Source of the DNA: Candidatus Fermentibacterota bacterium
GTDB taxonomy: Bacteria; JAFGKV01
Reading direction: 5' to 3'
DNA: 35,513 nt
Assembly: GCA_030620115.1 (NCBI GenBank)
Contig: JAUXFG010000025.1
Coordinates: 1 to 35,513 of the forward strand
Shown here: positions 27,693 through 35,103 of the stretch, one piece after another
Layout: each line of letters begins with the position of its first letter
Position numbering within the stretch: position 1 is the stretch's first letter
The notes under the pieces: model-generated
The model's input: only the letters and a program-made list of their open reading frames with translations
Told to the model about the DNA's origin: nothing
The model's database searches: none
Made by a program: the position numbers and the translations under genes

Positions 27693-28597
27693 TCATTCAC
27701 CATTTCCCCCTTCCTGCCACTCCAGCAGAATCCGCGTTCCCTTCCTCGCTAGATGGTATTCTTGTTTACTGCTTCTGGGTTTGTCGGGGATAGTCATTTC
27801 AATGAAACTTTCCGCCAGGGCCGGAGCAAGATACAGCTCCCTGAATGATTTACGGTCCTGCAGCTTCATGGCGGCCTGCAATTCCTCCCGGGTCATTTCG
27901 CCAAGGATCGCTCGTATCAGTCTTTCGATTTGGGGGGTAACTTCCACTGCGACATGCCCCCTGCCTTCCTGGATCGTGAGCGGCTCAGCCAGCTGCACGA
28001 CAAACCGCATCCGCATCCCGACCTCGGCTATTTCGGGTGCGGGCAATCCCTGTTCCTCGGCCTCCCTGAACATGCGGCGCACTCCGCTGCCCCATTGCTC
28101 GATCAGTTTCAACTCACGGAAAACACGGGCAATGACATGGTTGCGAATTTTAGAAACGCCCTGCAGCATATGGTCGATGGTCATGCCCGGCAAAAGGATG
28201 CCGGGATTCTCGATCTCGATGCGATCATCGAAAAAGGCGATACGGATGGGCGCGCCGCGCTGGGAATAATCGACGTGAACCAGGGCGTCAATCACCGCTT
28301 CGCGCAGGATGCCGAGGGGCATGCTCCAGCCATCCCTGCGCCGGATTTCGGAGAAATCGGCGCCGCGCAATGGGCAGTTCATCAAAAGCAACGCCTTCCA
28401 CGGAACGGCGTAGCTCGACGATCAGCTCACGGTCAGCCTGACGGTTGGTGGAGCCAAGCCGTACATAGGCACCGCCCTCCGGGCCTTCGGTCTTCAGCCA
28501 GTGGGGCCGAGATCCGCTCAGAAAAACCTCGATCACAAGCATGGTCTTGCCGTCCACGGTGATCATCTCGACATTCGGTACCAGGCGTGGTCTGATC
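27693..28597 (-). pseudogene. AlbA_2/RecG-like ATP-binding regulator, broken
   Basis: Remnant of a Schlafen/AlbA_2 plus HATPase_c_4 protein. The N-terminal piece in one frame shows VDGKTMLVIEVFLSGSRPHW, GGAYVRLGSTNRQADRE and VAFDELPI, the end of an AlbA_2 domain. Near 28375 the frame changes and the protein jumps to PLGILREAVIDALVHVDYSQ, EIENPGILLPGMT, the GHKL-like part, ending with a winged-helix tail SFIEMTIPDKPRSSKQEYHL. Intact relatives have roughly 150 residues between these parts, so an internal deletion with frameshift has occurred. The true 5' part (start to mid-AlbA_2) is also missing, lost at the fusion with RhuM near 28595. Not functional as a full protein. Confidence 0.8.
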
Positions 28598-29389
28598 TTC
28601 AGAAAAATCCAGCGACATCATGACAATCCGGTTCAGGTCATTGATTTCATCTTCTTTCAGATAGTTCTTGGCCGTGGTGACATCGGTTCTGCGAACTTCT
28701 CCCACCTTCCAACTGGTGAGACCCATATTGGGAAGCAGATGATTGGCGCGTGATTGAATCAGCTCGGCAGCGGTCATCCCCGTCGCGGAAAAATGCAGCT
28801 TGTTCTGAATCACACTGAAAAACTTCGTGGTTTCCGGCCATGAGGGTTCGTAGTCGGCTGCCATGGCGAATATTTCTTTCACCCGCAAATACATCCGCCG
28901 TTCGCTAGCGCGAATGTCGCGGATACGTTCCAGCATTTCATCGAAATAGTCGGGAACAGCGGAACCCTTGACCGGTGGATTCTTCAGGCGTTCATCATCC
29001 ATGACAAAGCCCTTAACAATGTACTCTTTCAACCGCTGAGTGGCCCAGATCCGAAAACGCGTGGCAACCAGGCTTTTCACCCGGTAGCCAACCGAAATGA
29101 TCATGTCCAGATTGTAGAAATCCAGCTCGCGCCCAACATCCCGCTTCCCCTCCCGTCGAACCGACAAGAATTTCTTGTAAGTTGCATCCGGGGTGAGTTC
29201 CCCTTCCTCAAAGATATTCCGAATATGCTGGCTGATGTTCTGCTGGGTGGTCTGAAACAACTCAGCCATCAAAGGCTGTGTCAGCCAAACGGTTTCATCC
29301 TGCAGCCGCACATCAAGCCTTACCTGCCCGTCCTCAGTCTGATACAGCAGAAATTCTCCGTCCGGCACGCTGGGAAGGTTCTTGCTCAT
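28433..29389 (-). pseudogene. RhuM-family protein with C-terminus replaced by deletion
   Basis: A 318-codon frame whose first ~266 residues are a RhuM-family protein: LLYQTEDGQVRLDVRLQDET, VWLTQPLMAELFQTTQQNIS, the virulence-RhuM hallmark LDFYNLDMIISVGYRVKS, and LNRIVMMSLDFSEDQ. After residue 266 (about 28591) the family sequence stops and the frame runs out of phase through the AlbA_2 remnant, giving a nonsense tail. RhuM proteins are frequent passengers of type I/III restriction-modification cassettes; their function is poorly known. Its ATG overlaps the stop of the methyltransferase remnant (TAATG), showing the original operon. The truncated RhuM might still fold, so 'pseudogene' is likely rather than certain. 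Confidence 0.75.
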
Positions 29390-29888
29390 TAGTCACCGCC
29401 CTTATCGAACAATGAAAGCTGATTCGGGTTGCCCTTGCCGAACTTCCGCCGTGGTTTGGCGGGCTTGTCTTCGGTCTGCTCTTCCAACTCCGGCGGGGCC
29501 TTGGTGAGGTTCTGGATCTCCAGGCTGTGGTCGTCGTGTCCCCACTCGCATTTCTTCAAGACCGCGTTGGGGATTTTCTTGATGGTCAGATTGGAGAACT
29601 CGCCCGGGTCGCAGCGGAAAGCGGAGCAGCAGATGAGCAGGCCGCGTTCCGGTCCGACCTCGTCGCTCAGTCGGGTCAGCATATCCCTACAAACTCCTGC
29701 TCCAGCACCTTCAATGCCGGCAGGTTGTCGCCAAAGATCAGCCTACTGTCGAAAATGTCCTTTTCGCAGTAACATTGAGCCGCGTGGTAGGATTTCTCCG
29801 GGTCCTCAATCAGGATTCTCGGCTCCAGCTCTGGCCGGTTTTTCTTCCCGATCCACGTCAGTTCCAAACGTGTATTCTTTTTTGCCAT
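29389..29888 (-). pseudogene. Site-specific DNA-methyltransferase (Mod-like), central part deleted
   Basis: Two ends of one type III Mod-like adenine methyltransferase with the middle missing. From ATG 29888 the N-terminus MAKKNTRLELTWIGKKNRPE, ILIEDPEKSY and IFGDNLPALKVLEQEF is exactly the family opening. After about 29685 the frame shifts to the C-terminus: LTRLSDEVGPERGLLICCSA, FSNLTIKKIPNAVLKKCEWG and GNPNQLSLFDKGGD. The catalytic DPPY and SAM-binding FxGxG regions, expected right after LEQEF, are gone (several hundred residues). It begins 11 nt after the ATPase stop, and its stop overlaps the RhuM start. No activity is expected. Confidence 0.85.
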
Positions 29889-29899
29889 TGTTTTCCTCA

Positions 29900-31588
29900 T
29901 CAAGAGTCCCTGAACACTGCAAGCGTCCTGTCGATCACGTCCTTGGGAATCTCGCCTCTGTATCGCCCCTTCAGAAGCTTGACGAATTTCTTGCAGAACT
30001 CCAGGCATTCCGTTTTGTGAGCATGAACCCAAGATTTGAATACTTTCTGATTACCACGTCCCCAATGCCGACTTTGCTCTTTGTACCATTTCTTCACCCA
30101 TTCCTTGTTGTCACCTTGCTCCAGGGAGGTACCCCCTTTGGACGTTACGGCATGTTGCCTCGTGTAGGTGGTTCCAACTTTCTTCCAAAATGGGTCGGAG
30201 TCTTTCATCGAGAACAGGTGACGGTAAACAAGAGTCTCTGGGCGTTTGTCTCCCGGCAAAGCAAGGAGACTTTGGGGGGGGTTGGACCATGCATTAGCCA
30301 TATCACCATCCGGAACAAGGATCATGTCCTGCAACTCCGGCAGAGACCTTGACATATCAGCAAGGTTTTTCAGCTGCCCCCCGCCTATAGTGGCAGTATT
30401 TGCGCAAAAGACATACTTCCGAAGCTTTGAACCACAAATCTGCTTGAACAGAAACTTCCCTTCATCATCCTCAAAGACCATCGATACTTTGCGTGGCTTT
30501 CTCCTTGTGGGTGGAGTTGCCTCCACCTTCAAATGATCGCTGATCTCCTGATAGGTCAAGAATTTCTGAGTGACAATCATGCCATCCTCATTGGCCAGAT
30601 ACAGGATTTCAATATCCCTCTTGAGCGGGGATTGATATGCCTTTTCAAGCAGACGCAAAGAATGTGACGTGGCAATGATCTGCAATCCAAGTTCATTCGA
30701 CTCTTCGCAGAACAGTTCAAGAAGCCTATCCTGTGCGAAGGCGTGAAGCGTGGCATCCAATTCGTCGATCAGAAGCATCCCTCCCTGATACTGTCCACCG
30801 AGCTTTCTCTTGAGACCTCGAAAAGACAGGATCGCCGTCAGTAGCTGACTCAGGTTGTCTTGCCCGGCCGAGCAACTTTTGCCGTCATAGTCGCTGCTGT
30901 GAGGAGTGATGAACTTCCTCTTTTCGGCGGTAGCCATGAACTTGGCGCTATTGTCACGCTCATCCAGGCAGAGAATCTCGTTGTACTTATTGACATACCA
31001 ATCCCTATTCTCAGCCGAAAGGGCATCGTCAGAGAAGGTGCATTTCTTCGTCACGGCCAGAGGCCACAAACGATTCAAGCCAAGATAGATCACGGGATGC
31101 GGGAAGTTGCCTTCACCGGACTCATGGCTGGCTCCGGGGCCGGTCACGAAACGCATCCTTGTTACACGCCCTTCAGTCTTTGGGCTCCGCGATTTCGTTA
31201 GCAGATAATTGTTAGGCAAGTTGGTCCCTGCGCCTGCTGGCAACGCCAATTGGGTTTCGTACTGGTACTCCTTGCCAAAGTCAAATTCTTCTGACAGACG
31301 AAACACATCATCGCAGTCATACATAAATCGTTTTCCGGTGAGATCCTTGAATTCATGAAGCTTGAGATCGTGGTAGTTTTCCGTGTAACTGGAAGCATCG
31401 GGTTTTCGGGCCGTCCTGCCGCGCACCACGCCGAATGAGAAGGGCTGCGCCAGCATCCCCAACAGAGTCGATTTGGATGTCCCGTTTTGTCCGGCTATGA
31501 GTGTTACATGGTCACCAAACGGAATAGTGATGCCGCTGAATCGCCTGAATGTGTCAATCTTGAGGCAAACCACTTTTGTTATTCCCAT
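29900..31588 (-). CDS. ABC-type ATPase with C-terminal TOPRIM-like module (OLD/PARIS-like)
   Basis: A 562-residue intact protein. The ATPase part has Walker A GQNGTSKSTLLGML (residues ~33-46), a signature-like CSAGQDNLSQLL, Walker B MLLIDELDATLHAFAQDRLL, and the switch histidine in IIATSHSLRLLE. This is the AAA_15/AAA_23 arrangement of OLD-type proteins. From ~385 a TOPRIM-like region follows: VSMVFEDDEGKFLFKQI gives the acidic first motif, IGGGQLKNL the turn, and MILVPDGDMANAW a D-x-D. The tail ends in a basic helical region. AGGAG precedes the ATG, which overlaps the dam-type gene by 10 nt, so both are translated together. OLD-like ATPase-nucleases defend against phages; here the partner is a methyltransferase. 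Nuclease assignment is inference. Confidence 0.8.
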   Translation of the reverse strand: MGITKVVCLKIDTFRRFSGITIPFGDHVTLIAGQNGTSKSTLLGMLAQPFSFGVVRGRTARKPDASSYTENYHDLKLHEFKDLTGKRFMYDCDDVFRLSEEFDFGKEYQYETQLALPAGAGTNLPNNYLLTKSRSPKTEGRVTRMRFVTGPGASHESGEGNFPHPVIYLGLNRLWPLAVTKKCTFSDDALSAENRDWYVNKYNEILCLDERDNSAKFMATAEKRKFITPHSSDYDGKSCSAGQDNLSQLLTAILSFRGLKRKLGGQYQGGMLLIDELDATLHAFAQDRLLELFCEESNELGLQIIATSHSLRLLEKAYQSPLKRDIEILYLANEDGMIVTQKFLTYQEISDHLKVEATPPTRRKPRKVSMVFEDDEGKFLFKQICGSKLRKYVFCANTATIGGGQLKNLADMSRSLPELQDMILVPDGDMANAWSNPPQSLLALPGDKRPETLVYRHLFSMKDSDPFWKKVGTTYTRQHAVTSKGGTSLEQGDNKEWVKKWYKEQSRHWGRGNQKVFKSWVHAHKTECLEFCKKFVKLLKGRYRGEIPKDVIDRTLAVFRDS

Positions 31589-32463
31589 CGCCGTCTCCTG
31601 TCATCATTGCCTTGGAGTTGTTCGAGATAATCTGGAAGATTCAGTTTACTGATAATCAATTCCTCGGCATTCGTATTTCCTGTGATAGTATGCCTGATGT
31701 GATTTCGATACAGGCTGCAATCGTGGTCGCGATACATTTCTACGATGTTTTCGTGGTTGTCGTAGGAGAGCACCCAAGGAGAGGAACATCCCAGAATGGC
31801 ATCTCGAAGAGACTTATGGTCCTCGTGGCTGAAATGGTTCAGGTATAGTGCGGGACCCTTCTGGTAGTATGGGGGGTCGAAATATATCAGGCACTTTCTG
31901 TTGCGGTGTTGCTGCTTGAGAAGCTTCAGGAAGTTCACTCCGTCCAAGTTGAAAACTTCAAGTGAGTCAGCATGCTTAGCGATAGCCTTGATCTTTGCAA
32001 TAGACGTGGCCTTGTTATATCTGGAGCTGATTCTGTAGACGCCATTTTGCTTCATGCCTCCAATGGGTCTGGCTTCCAAAATCCCTGAATGATTACAGCG
32101 ATTCAGGTAAAATGTGGAGAAGCCGAGTGCAAGCATATCGCTTGTATCCTTGCTGTCGTAGATTGCCTTTTGCCGCCTCCATTCTGCCATACTGACCCGA
32201 GTGCTCCGAATGAGCTTAACAAGCTCCACAGGGCATTCTTTGACAGATTTCCAGAATGAGTAGATCGCAACATCCAGATCATTGAGGAATAGGGACTTGA
32301 CGTGCCCTTTGAGAAGCAACGAGATTGCGGCCCCAGCTCCACCCGCAAAAACCTCGACGAAGGTGCAATTGTCGAGATTGTTCATCGAAATAATGTCGAC
32401 GAACAAATTGCCATACTTTGTTTTGCCACCTGGATATCGTAATGGTGTTAGCGTTTCGGGCAT
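31579..32463 (-). CDS. Dam-type (D12 class) DNA adenine N6-methyltransferase
   Basis: A 294-residue DNA methyltransferase that transfers methyl from SAM to adenine N6. TPLRYPGGKTKYGNLFVDII is the N-terminal signature of the class. EVFAGGAGAAISLLL is the SAM-binding FxGxG, LNDLDVAIYSFWKSV follows, FYLNRCNHSGIL is the conserved N-R-x-x-[HF]-S-G-I block, and the catalytic motif is YFDPPYYQKG. All key residues are present. The likely start is ATG 32463 with AGGAAG upstream; a GTG at 32469 is less well placed. The target site cannot be deduced. It is the first gene of a two-gene operon with the ATPase and probably protects host DNA, or marks targets, for it. Confidence 0.88.
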   Translation of the reverse strand: MPETLTPLRYPGGKTKYGNLFVDIISMNNLDNCTFVEVFAGGAGAAISLLLKGHVKSLFLNDLDVAIYSFWKSVKECPVELVKLIRSTRVSMAEWRRQKAIYDSKDTSDMLALGFSTFYLNRCNHSGILEARPIGGMKQNGVYRISSRYNKATSIAKIKAIAKHADSLEVFNLDGVNFLKLLKQQHRNRKCLIYFDPPYYQKGPALYLNHFSHEDHKSLRDAILGCSSPWVLSYDNHENIVEMYRDHDCSLYRNHIRHTITGNTNAEELIISKLNLPDYLEQLQGNDDRRRRWE

Positions 32464-32472
32464 CTCCACTTC

Positions 32473-32643: not shown

Positions 32644-32880
32644 CATTCAGAATCCCCCTCCCTTTATCCGTCAGCCGGTATTTCTGCTTGCTGCTTCGGG
32701 GCTTGTCAGGGATAGTCATTTCGATCAGCCCGGCTTCAATCAAGGGATTTATTATGCTATTTCTGAAACGTGTCCGGTTTGTCTGCCCTGTTTTTTCTAT
32801 AAGTCTCTGAATCCCGATATTCTCCTGGGCTGTTTCCAGAATAACTGCAGCAATATCACTTGGGACAGACTTGAGACAGA
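32636..32880 (-). pseudogene. C-terminal winged-helix remnant of a second AlbA_2-like protein
   Basis: The frame reads SDIAAVILETAQENIGIQRL, IEKTGQTNRTRFRNSIINPL and ends EMTIPDKPRSSKQKYRLTDK. The last part is nearly identical to the tail of the broken AlbA_2-like gene at 27693 (EMTIPDKPRSSKQEYHL). It has no start or N-terminal domains and is joined out of frame to the helicase fragment upstream. Near the junction, 11-bp near-tandem units (AAGTCTGTCTC / AAGTCTGTCCC on the - strand) are visible. It was too short to stand out as a gene but is clearly homologous to its neighbour. Confidence 0.7.
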
Positions 32881-33269
32881 CTTAGTGCCAGCTTGGTGTC
32901 AGCACCACCGGCACCAAGGGCCTCATGGGCCTTGACTACCGGGATATCGGGCAAAACGGCGGGCAGGAGGAAAGCTATATACACCGAACCGGCCTGTTCC
33001 TGCCAGGCAGGAGCAGGATTGGCGTTCTCCGTGCACCATTGTGCTAAAACAATTCCTGCTTCGATAGTCTTACCAGGACCAACGTCGTCGACGAGAATTC
33101 CACCACTGGATAATGGCGAACGAAGCGCGAACAGAGCTGCATCGATCTGATGCGGGTTAGGGCCAACGCGAGCGTTGGCAATAGACCTGGAGAGGGATTC
33201 GTTGTTGCCACCTGACCCCTGGAGGCTCAAGGCGTTCGCCCAATACTGGCTGTGGTAAGGTGCGCTCAA
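32856..33269 (-). pseudogene. N-terminal fragment of a SNF2-family helicase
   Basis: The first ~80 residues match the opening of SNF2-like helicases found in DISARM and type III-like restriction cassettes: YHSQYWANALSL, GPNPHQIDAALFALRSPLS, then GGILVDDVGPGKTIEAGIVL, the Walker A region (usual form DEVGLGKT; here DDVGPGKT). Beyond AQWCTEN the sequence no longer looks like a helicase and ends after ~58 more codons, so motifs Ia-VI are gone. The TTG start overlaps the XRE stop (TTGA), typical of a coupled regulator-helicase operon. Confidence 0.75.
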
Positions 33270-33493
33270 TCCTTGCCCTCAGATAGATCAAGCTTGCCCT
33301 GCCTCACCATCTTGGAGCAGAGATTATCAAACTGTCTCTTGGCCAACTTGAACGGTGTGGTCTTGCCGTTTTCCCAGCGGTTGATGGTCGCAAAACTCAC
33401 TCCCAACGCATGGGCAAGTTCTTCCTGACTGATTCCCAGTTGCCTGCGAACTTCCTTAACTTTTTCCGGGAATTCTTCGGGACTTTTGGTCAT
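33266..33493 (-). CDS. XRE-family helix-turn-helix regulator
   Basis: A 75-residue DNA-binding protein. The HTH is clear: KVKEVRRQLGISQEELAHAL then GVSFATINRWENGKTTPFKL. I place the start at ATG 33493 (MTKSPEEFPE), with AGAGG upstream; a longer in-frame version to 33541 is possible but poorly supported. Its stop overlaps the helicase-fragment start, so it once controlled the restriction cassette. It is apparently intact and could still regulate the island operon, including the adenine methyltransferase-ATPase pair. Confidence 0.85.
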   Translation of the reverse strand: MTKSPEEFPEKVKEVRRQLGISQEELAHALGVSFATINRWENGKTTPFKLAKRQFDNLCSKMVRQGKLDLSEGKD

Positions 33494-33589
33494 TGCAATA
33501 TCCTCTTGCCGCCTCTTTGTGTGCCTGTTTCCGATCTGCACGCAAGCAAGTGCTTATCCAAATCCATCCGGAGACAGACAATCCACTTA

Positions 33590-34371: not shown

Positions 34372-34745
34372 CGCTCTCTATCGCGATGCCTAGAAGTGAC
34401 GGCGAGCGAATTCGCGTCCTGAACCGGATTTGAGATAGCGCTCGAATGCAACCGCCTTGGCCTCAGATCGGAACGAGACAACTGTCTCCATCCGCCATGG
34501 ACGATATTTGGACGTATGAGGAACCTGACCGTAGTTATGCTGCTTCAATCGATTCTCAAGATTCGTGGTTCGTCCAACATAGTGGCGGGCTGGCTTGTTC
34601 ACTGTCACAAGGATGTACACATAGTAGAATTCATTCAAAGCTGGCCTGCCAAGCCGTAGCCTCGCGAAGTTCATTGTGAATTCTGCCCGCCTTCGTCCGA
34701 CAGATCTCGGATCTCCGGCGTGGCAGCCTCCGCTCTCTATCGCGA
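34372..34745. repeat. 15-bp direct repeats flanking the GIY-YIG gene
   Basis: CGCTCTCTATCGCGA occurs exactly at 34372-34386 and 34731-34745. The copies tightly bracket the nuclease gene, the right one ending 8 nt from the 3' end of ssrA. They may be footprints of insertion, or a chance pair of a local repeat. Confidence 0.5.
34390..34674 (-). CDS. Small GIY-YIG domain nuclease
   Basis: A 94-residue single-domain GIY-YIG protein of the UvrC/URI-type small group. EFYYVYILVTVNKPARHYVG gives the paired Y-V-Y / Y-V-G motif. RTTNLENRLKQHNYG carries the conserved Arg helix and His. KYRPWRMETVVSFRSEAKAV and FERYLKSGSGREFARRHF are the typical C-terminal half with the catalytic Glu. The length is normal for the group. 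The role is unknown; such genes are often found next to mobile or decayed regions. A 15-bp direct repeat CGCTCTCTATCGCGA lies on either side of the gene (34372-34386 and 34731-34745). Confidence 0.88.
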   Translation of the reverse strand: MNFARLRLGRPALNEFYYVYILVTVNKPARHYVGRTTNLENRLKQHNYGQVPHTSKYRPWRMETVVSFRSEAKAVAFERYLKSGSGREFARRHF

Positions 34746-34753
34746 GCGAAGGC

Positions 34754-35103
34754 TGGTGGAGGCGGCGGGAATCGAACCCGCGTCCGAAGCTGCCTCAGCC
34801 AAAGCTACTACGTGCGTTTCCCGTCTATTGGTTCTCGCCGCCTCATGCTCCGGCGGGCAGGATCATGAGACAGCCAGCCTCTATAGTCTCGCACGGGGAG
34901 TCGAGACAATTCCCCATGCCAGCCCGCGTGTTCGACGCCCAGCCAGAGCCCCACAGGCAAAAGCTAAGGTGGACGTGGCTGTTTCTAAGCAGCCAGGAGA
35001 TACTGCTCGTTGGCAGTTATGTTTTTCCCGCTGTTTTACGAGGCCGCGGGACCTCGGCACGCAACTCTGACCTCATCCAGCCCCGTCGAAGCCGTTCGCC
35101 CCC
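34754..35103 (-). ncRNA. ssrA: tmRNA (transfer-messenger RNA)
   Basis: A 350-nt one-piece tmRNA that rescues stalled ribosomes by trans-translation. The 5' end GGGGGCGAACGGCTTCGACG and the 3' end with T-arm GGGTTCGATTCCC and CCA pair through a 7-bp acceptor stem (GGGGGCG/CGCCTCC, one G-U). The mRNA-like part (35029-34985, - strand) reads GKNITANEQYLLAA then TAG; the resume codon is probably GGG, though nearby codons are possible. The tag ends LAA as in most bacteria. Its 3' end faces the accessory island. Confidence 0.97.

What the first reader, a model, noticed from the sequence alone, without database searches (positions are those of the whole stretch)
29900..32463. Intact two-gene operon: Dam-type adenine methyltransferase plus ATPase with TOPRIM-like C-terminus
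Seen: two undamaged genes overlapping by 10 nt. The first has all D12-class methyltransferase motifs (FxGxG, DPPY). The second has Walker A/B, a signature-like motif and a switch His, followed by an acidic motif and a DGD consistent with a TOPRIM nuclease. Known: OLD-family and PARIS proteins pair ABC ATPases with TOPRIM modules in phage defence. Inference: here a modification enzyme is directly coupled to such an ATPase-nuclease, which could be a restriction-like or modification-sensing system not matching the named OLD, Gabija or PARIS layouts. The genes look less GC-rich than the chromosome and are the only intact pair among wrecks, which suggests selection to keep them.
Basis: partly seen in the sequence, partly recalled or inferred. 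Interest (0 to 1): 0.68.

Follow-up and report, generated by a model that had tools for sequence, protein, structure and literature searches.

The report
Methyltransferase paired with OLD-like ATPase
Two intact neighbouring genes, a DNA-marking enzyme and an ATP-driven protein that probably cuts nucleic acid, form a widespread but apparently uncharacterised bacterial and phage immune pair that shares its marking enzyme with a proven anti-phage system (PD-lambda-5).

Summary
On the minus strand, an intact D12 adenine methyltransferase (31579-32469) overlaps an intact 562-aa ABC ATPase (29900-31588) by 10 nt, amid broken defence genes. They come from many phyla, an archaeon, prophages and plasmids. 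The methyltransferase is PADLOC's PD-lambda-5_B (3e-99). The ATPase is not PD-lambda-5_A, which is a ParB-like protein. In viral contigs the methyltransferase is paired with the ParB-like protein (24 of 39), the ATPase (12) or both (1). The ABC part belongs with OLD/PtuA/AriA/GajA. The C-terminal domain has the TOPRIM order beta-E-alpha-beta-alpha-beta-DxD with OLD-like spacing, and its acidic residues are invariant in 65/65 homologues. No Pfam, profile-profile or isolated-domain fold search confirms TOPRIM, so the nuclease remains an inference. One clade has exchanged the D12 enzyme for type I RM or C5-methyltransferase plus NgoPII-like RM. Best reading: a methylation-gated OLD-like effector, a sister layout to PD-lambda-5. 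A guard of RM systems is the main rival. Function is untested.

The parts
31579..32469 (-). D12-class (alpha-group) adenine-N6 DNA methyltransferase, 296 aa from GTG or 294 aa from ATG 32463; PD-lambda-5_B family
   Evidence: Pfam MethyltransfD12 1.5e-19; PADLOC PDLC04018 PD-Lambda-5_B 3e-99; DPPY and the glycines of the FxGxG motif conserved in 12 aligned sequences
29900..31588 (-). OLD-like ABC ATPase with C-terminal TOPRIM-like domain, 562 aa
   Evidence: Pfam AAA_21 1.2e-14; AlphaFold2 pLDDT 88.7 and best PDB fold match OLD nuclease 6p74, 3.4e-10
30524..31588 (-). ABC ATPase region (about residues 1-355): K39, S240, G242, D244, D275, E276, Q303, H309 invariant in 65 homologues
29903..30511 (-). 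C-terminal TOPRIM-like domain (residues 360-562): E373, D374, D427, D429 invariant in 65 homologues
31579..31588 (-). 10-nt overlap of methyltransferase stop and ATPase start, implying one operon
29676..29888 (-). 5' remnant of a type III RM modification gene (Mod residues 1-67), starting 11 nt after the ATPase stop
   Evidence: 72% identity to residues 1-67 of L021 Mod; PADLOC MTase_III 7.6e-22
29389..29682 (-). 3' remnant of the same Mod gene (residues about 500-599); the catalytic middle, about 430 residues, is deleted
   Evidence: 55% identity to residues 500-599 of L021 Mod; PADLOC MTase_III 1.7e-19

Best explanation
A two-gene, methylation-gated immune module. The methyltransferase puts an N6-methyl-adenine mark on the cell's own DNA (class shown by sequence; activity and motif inferred). 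The ABC ATPase dimerises and uses ATP to control a C-terminal TOPRIM-like nuclease (ATPase shown by homology; dimerisation and nuclease inferred). While the host mark, or the methyltransferase itself, is present, the nuclease is kept off. Entry of unmarked phage DNA, or loss of the mark during infection, releases it, and it cleaves DNA or another nucleic acid. It acts like a restriction-modification pair whose restriction half is an OLD-type ATPase-nuclease, and it is a sister layout to PD-lambda-5, in which the same methyltransferase works with a ParB-like partner.
For: Conserved pairing: 97 of 112 non-redundant ATPase loci carry this methyltransferase, 88 within 150 bp, in both gene orders and convergently, although the loci were fetched with ATPase queries only. 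ATPase and methyltransferase distances correlate, Mantel r 0.54, 0 of 2000 shuffles as high. The reverse survey of the methyltransferase in viral contigs gives partner ATPase 12, ParB-like 24, both 1, none 2 of 39; one of the two is at a contig edge and the other is a fragment. Methyltransferase family PD-Lambda-5_B 3e-99; PD-lambda-5 affected all but one of ten phages tested in E. coli, and was cloned in a host lacking the mrr region (PMC9519451). If that was needed because Mrr attacks the new methylation, the family is an active methylase of a motif other than GATC (inference). ATPase catalytic residues and the E/DxD acids are invariant in 65 homologues. OLD-like fold. Defence and mobile contexts: E. 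coli prophages, P2-like Vibrio phage, Streptococcus phage, plasmids, RM loci.
Against: The TOPRIM assignment has no significant profile or isolated-domain fold match. In one 12-member clade the ATPase sits with C5-methyltransferase plus NgoPII-like endonuclease or with type I RM, systems that already have a nuclease and use other motifs. That is hard to square with the ATPase being a motif-matched restriction enzyme. Seven of 112 loci have no modification enzyme in view. There are no experimental data on this pair.
Confidence: 0.45

Rival explanations
1. Guard (second-line, PARIS-like) module. The ATPase watches over a methyltransferase or a whole RM system. When a phage inhibits it (Ocr-like mimics, SAM depletion), the ATPase fires its TOPRIM-like effector and aborts infection, regardless of methylation motif.
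For: The ATPase sits beside type I, II and III RM systems that already have nucleases: L040, L051, L088; L037, L057, L063, L075; L021, L029. It changed modification partner within one clade. 21 of 112 loci also carry the ParB-like PD-lambda-5_A. [quoted passage not shown] Vassallo et al. call PD-lambda-5 a compacted RM+Abi system.
Against: Most loci (76 of 112) have the D12 methyltransferase without the ParB-like partner, and few of these have an RM enzyme in view to guard. The effector is fused to the ATPase rather than sequestered as a separate AriB.
Confidence: 0.3
2. A PD-lambda-5 accessory rather than a system of its own: the ancestral unit is methyltransferase + ParB-like + ATPase, and two-gene versions such as the window's are reduced or partly decayed.
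For: Three-gene loci exist in 21 of 112, for example Vibrio phage ValB1MD-2 with the ParB-like gene split in two. The window locus lies among decayed genes.
Against: Two-gene pairs are the majority, are widespread and well conserved, and two-gene ParB-like pairs are also common. The window's own clade (L020, L021) has no ParB-like gene.
Confidence: 0.12
3. The C-terminal domain is not a TOPRIM nuclease but another Rossmann-like acidic domain (for example a regulatory or nucleotide-binding module), and the ATPase acts on the methyltransferase or DNA without cutting.
For: No consistent Pfam match in 65 members and none in the window's own. Isolated-domain Foldseek has no hit below 0.001 and lists Rossmann-like enzymes at noise level. 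Profile-profile comparison with OLD TOPRIM gives E 0.28, no better than a shuffled control.
Against: E373, D374, D427 and D429 are 100% invariant. E-to-DxD spacing is 49-61 in the family (median 54) and 50-62 in true OLD TOPRIMs. The strand/helix order is TOPRIM-like. Full-length fold hits to OLD 6p74 and GajA use about 630-668 alignment columns, against 354-387 for several SMC and Rad50 heads.
Confidence: 0.13

Closest known systems
PD-lambda-5 (Vassallo et al. 2022, PMC9519451)
   Same: Same methyltransferase family (PD-Lambda-5_B, 3e-99), prophage and plasmid homes, two-gene layout; sometimes the same locus holds all three genes
   Different: PD-lambda-5_A is a ParB-like ~440-510 aa protein; the window has an OLD-like ATPase in its place and no PD-Lambda-5_A among the flanking genes
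OLD family nucleases, classes 1-5 (PMC10568477, PMC12796447)
   Same: N-terminal ABC ATPase, C-terminal TOPRIM-like acids with matching spacing; best full-length fold match is OLD 6p74
   Different: Partner is a DNA methyltransferase rather than none (class 1), UvrD-like helicase (2), reverse transcriptase (3), the PARIS layout (4, from memory) or the Sulfolobales membrane protein (5); C-terminal domain not recognised by the Pfam OLD TOPRIM model
PARIS (AriA/AriB)
   Same: ABC ATPase related to AriA (PADLOC AriA 5e-15) with a presumed TOPRIM effector; link to RM biology
   Different: Effector domain is fused, no separate AriB/DUF4435 gene, and a methyltransferase is the fixed partner
Gabija (GajA/GajB)
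   Same: ABC ATPase plus TOPRIM-like domain in one protein; full-length Foldseek match
   Different: No GajB helicase next to it
Septu/retron PtuA ATPases
   Same: ABC ATPase region is close in sequence (PtuA 1.3e-11; PDB 8ee4)
   Different: PtuA partners with an HNH nuclease (PtuB); no methyltransferase
Type II RM pair
   Same: Methyltransferase plus a putative nuclease as neighbours
   Different: No recognisable restriction endonuclease; the partner is an ATPase without an identified target-recognition domain

Membership tests
PD-lambda-5 | PD-Lambda-5_B methyltransferase | tested here: met
   PDLC04018 3e-99, PDLC04019 9.2e-57
PD-lambda-5 | PD-Lambda-5_A (ParB-like) next to it | tested here: not met
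   PADLOC scan of seven window proteins of the locus gives no PD-Lambda-5_A hit among the families listed; the family HMM finds no ParB-like gene within 3 kb of the window ATPase; model PDLC04017 finds nothing in the genome, but rang nowhere in controls
OLD family nuclease | N-terminal OLD-like ABC ATPase | tested here: met
   AAA_21 and AAA_15 above cut-off; profile-profile with OLDs 98.7%, 1.7e-16; Foldseek 6p74 3.4e-10
OLD family nuclease | C-terminal TOPRIM domain | tested here: inconclusive
   Motifs, spacing and topology agree; Pfam, profile-profile and isolated-domain fold searches do not confirm
Gabija | GajB UvrD-like helicase gene adjacent | tested here: not met
   Adjacent genes are the methyltransferase and a Mod remnant; the next flanking fragments are RhuM and SNF2-like, with no GajB hit among the families listed
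PARIS | AriA ATPase with a separate or fused AriB (DUF4435) TOPRIM | tested here: not met
   AriA matches only through the shared ABC core (residues 246-314, 5e-15); no DUF4435 match in P0001 and no significant profile match of the domain to DUF4435
Retron-associated OLD or PtuA | Reverse transcriptase and msDNA locus adjacent | tested here: not met
   No retron reverse transcriptase hit among the families listed for the flanking window proteins; Rfam not run
Dam (GATC) methyltransferase | TIGR00571 dam score above cut-off | tested here: not met
   51.5 bits against 114.85
D12-class adenine methyltransferase | MethyltransfD12 domain with FxGxG and DPPY | tested here: met
   1.5e-19, 71.2 bits over cut-off 22; motifs
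Restriction-modification system | Methylation of the host motif protects from the partner nuclease | not testable with these tools
   Needs methylome and restriction assays
Anti-phage defence system | Lowers phage plating when expressed | not testable with these tools
   Shown for PD-lambda-5 (PMC9519451), not for this pair

The most novel reading that the evidence does not exclude
A distinct, unnamed immune family: a D12 methyltransferase that serves as an exchangeable self-marker for two unrelated executioners, a ParB-like protein (PD-lambda-5) or an OLD-like ATPase-TOPRIM, with the ATPase also able to move onto type I, II and III RM systems as a general methylation-controlled second-line nuclease. 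It would be a further OLD class, defined by a methyltransferase partner.
Probability: 0.4. Interest if true: 0.75.

Novelty: new variant of a known kind. Interest (0 to 1): 0.57.

Why it matters
If the mechanism holds, current defence annotation is splitting one widespread system into an 'orphan type II methyltransferase' and an unnamed ATPase. It would connect restriction-modification with the OLD/PARIS/Gabija ATPases, show that one methyltransferase can be coupled to alternative executioners, and make the guard-versus-restriction question testable in E. coli, where 94 of 5426 complete genomes carry a relative of the ATPase.

Tried and rejected
Single-protein search of genome contigs with P0001: no confirmed relative; an alignment query was needed. 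PD-lambda-5 as the name of the whole pair: rejected, because the A component is a different protein. TOPRIM proof by Pfam on 65 members, PDB sequence profile, hhalign against nine OLD TOPRIMs and four DUF4435s, and Foldseek of the isolated domain on PDB and viral libraries: none significant. A first hhalign run used a wrong option and forced end-to-end alignment; it was redone. Island insertion at the tmRNA 3' end: the 20-nt 3' end occurs only once in window and genome, so no att repeat is seen. Search for ATPase-methyltransferase fusion proteins: none. Relatives in the same phylum: only three genomes held, and neither of the other two has the ATPase or a D12 methyltransferase. Literature: no paper found on the pair; Krishnan et al. 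2020 on ABC ATPases in conflict systems, the most likely place for an earlier mention, is not held.

Full report
WHAT IS THERE. Window positions 29900-32469, minus strand, hold two complete genes that overlap by 10 nt. The upstream one is a D12-class adenine methyltransferase (Pfam MethyltransfD12 1.5e-19) with FAGGAG and DPPY; DPPY is invariant in 12 aligned sequences. The downstream one is a 562-residue ABC ATPase (AAA_21 1.2e-14). The pair has 49.2% GC against 55.9% in positions 1-27000 and is present once in its 4.1-Mb genome. Only three genomes of its phylum are held, and the other two lack the ATPase.

THE SURROUNDINGS. Eleven bases after the ATPase stop begins a type III RM modification gene, of which only the ends remain. 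The first part matches residues 1-67 of an intact 600-aa Mod at 72% and the second matches residues 500-599 at 55%. The catalytic middle is gone. Beyond it lie a frameshifted RhuM gene and a HATPase_c_4/Fic-like-C gene. Upstream are a DrmD-like SNF2 fragment and an XRE regulator. The two nearest homologues lie in genomes described as a deltaproteobacterium (L020, 49% identity) and Riflebacteria (L021, 45%). They form a fully supported clade with the window, have the same gene order and also sit beside RM genes: HsdS and a type I R-like protein in L020, Mod and Res in L021.

IS THE PAIRING REAL? Loci were collected with ATPase queries only, so they were not chosen for the methyltransferase; a handful of seed loci came from the phage, plasmid and E. 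coli searches with the ATPase. After clustering at 80% identity, 97 of 112 ATPase loci contain this methyltransferase within 4.5 kb and 88 within 150 bp. The order is ATPase first in 73, methyltransferase first in 16, convergent in 7 and divergent in 1. Of the 15 exceptions, 4 carry a C5-methyltransferase with a restriction enzyme, recognised by Pfam as NgoPII-like in L057, 3 lie in type I RM operons, 1 is at a contig end and 7 show nothing comparable. Members come from Proteobacteria, Bacteroidota, Firmicutes, Actinobacteria, candidate phyla, the archaeon Methanococcoides, phages and plasmids. In E. coli, 94 of 5426 complete genomes carry a relative of the Citrobacter phage phiNP ATPase, and the two loci inspected have the methyltransferase ~80 bp downstream. 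Distances of the two proteins correlate (Mantel r 0.54, 0 of 2000 shuffles). No D12 relative was seen beside the small control set of OLD and DUF4435 loci, whose flanks are short.

THE LINK TO PD-LAMBDA-5. The methyltransferase is PADLOC's PD-Lambda-5_B (3e-99). PD-lambda-5 is a proven E. coli defence system that affected all but one of ten phages tested, and it was cloned in a strain lacking the mrr region (PMC9519451). If the mrr deletion was needed because Mrr attacks the new methylation, the family is an active methylase of a non-GATC motif; that step is an inference. The window's ATPase does not match PD-Lambda-5_A among its listed hits, and the phage and Acinetobacter ATPases do not either. 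True PD-Lambda-5_A proteins are ~440-510 aa, one of them annotated ParB/Srx. Surveying the methyltransferase itself in viral contigs gives partner ATPase 12, ParB-like 24, both 1, neither 2 of 39. 21 of the 112 ATPase loci have all three genes. The methyltransferase is therefore a shared module with two alternative partners.

THE ATPASE. AlphaFold2 gives a confident model (pLDDT 88.7). Its best PDB fold match is OLD nuclease 6p74 (3.4e-10), followed by SMC, PtuA and GajA entries. The OLD and GajA matches use about 630-668 alignment columns, whereas several SMC and Rad50 heads use 354-387, consistent with the OLD and GajA alignments running past the ATPase domain. The TM-scores normalised to the query are low (0.2-0.37), so domain packing differs. 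Invariant in all 65 aligned homologues are K39, S240, G242, D244, D275, E276, H309, E373, D374, D427, D429 and W468.

IS THE C-TERMINUS A TOPRIM? For: order strand-E-helix-strand-helix-strand-DxD, complete conservation of the acids, and spacing E to DxD of 49-61 (median 54) against 50-62 in nine OLD TOPRIMs, with a glycine-containing turn at a similar offset in most of them. Against: no Pfam family for the window domain and none shared by the 65 members, no PDB sequence match, no significant isolated-domain fold match in PDB or viral models, and hhalign E 0.28, no better than a shuffled control. Judgement: TOPRIM-like is likely (about 0.75) but not shown.

HOW IT MOST LIKELY WORKS. Shown: conserved linkage of the two genes, sequence classes, conserved catalytic residues, mobile and RM contexts. 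Inferred: methylation of self DNA, ATP control of a nuclease, and release by unmarked DNA or loss of the mark. The alternative is a guard that fires when a phage disables the methyltransferase or RM system, as PARIS does with Ocr (PMC12839542). The clade that moved to type I and C5-type RM favours the guard. The many stand-alone pairs favour restriction-like gating. The two share the core claim that the OLD-like effector is governed by a modification system.

NOVELTY. The parts are known families; the pairing, its breadth, the partner exchange with PD-lambda-5_A and the moves among RM systems appear undescribed in the papers that could be searched. The paper most likely to contain an earlier mention (Krishnan et al. 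2020) is not held, so a new variant of a known kind is the safe rating.

Noticed in passing
window 29389-29888: Type III Mod gene reduced to its two ends by a ~430-residue internal deletion, directly downstream of the pair; intact Mod-Res stands next to the homologous pair in L021.
   Followed up: yes
window 28433-29389: RhuM-family gene, frameshifted near its C-terminus (PADLOC candidate family PDC-S05).
   Followed up: partly
window 27693-28391: HATPase_c_4 plus Fic-like C-terminal domain gene, possibly the truncated end of a larger regulator.
   Followed up: no
window 32856-33541: DrmD-like SNF2 helicase fragment (~49 aa matched) next to an intact XRE-type regulator: remains of another defence gene.
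   Followed up: no
window 34390-35103: tmRNA gene on the minus strand at the edge of the defence remnants with a small ORF that looks GIY-YIG-like (by eye) next to it; no duplicated tmRNA 3' end was found.
   Followed up: partly
L010 2587-4249 and L005 3965-5733: In Fusobacterium and Psychrobacter the ATPase is split into two ORFs at about the same place, inside the TOPRIM-like domain between the E and DxD motifs; frameshift, error or true split is unknown.
   Followed up: no
L016 4001-8443 and L028 7584-12140: A third possible partner of the methyltransferase: a ~460-470 aa protein beside a HerA-like (DUF87) gene; L028 also has the OLD-like ATPase.
   Followed up: no
L037, L040, L051, L057, L063, L075, L088: ATPase clade that sits with C5-methyltransferase plus NgoPII-like restriction enzyme or inside type I RM operons instead of with the D12 methyltransferase.
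   Followed up: partly
L002 6467-8019: Vibrio phage ValB1MD-2 has ATPase, methyltransferase and a ParB-like PD-lambda-5_A-type protein split in two ORFs, all in one locus.
   Followed up: partly
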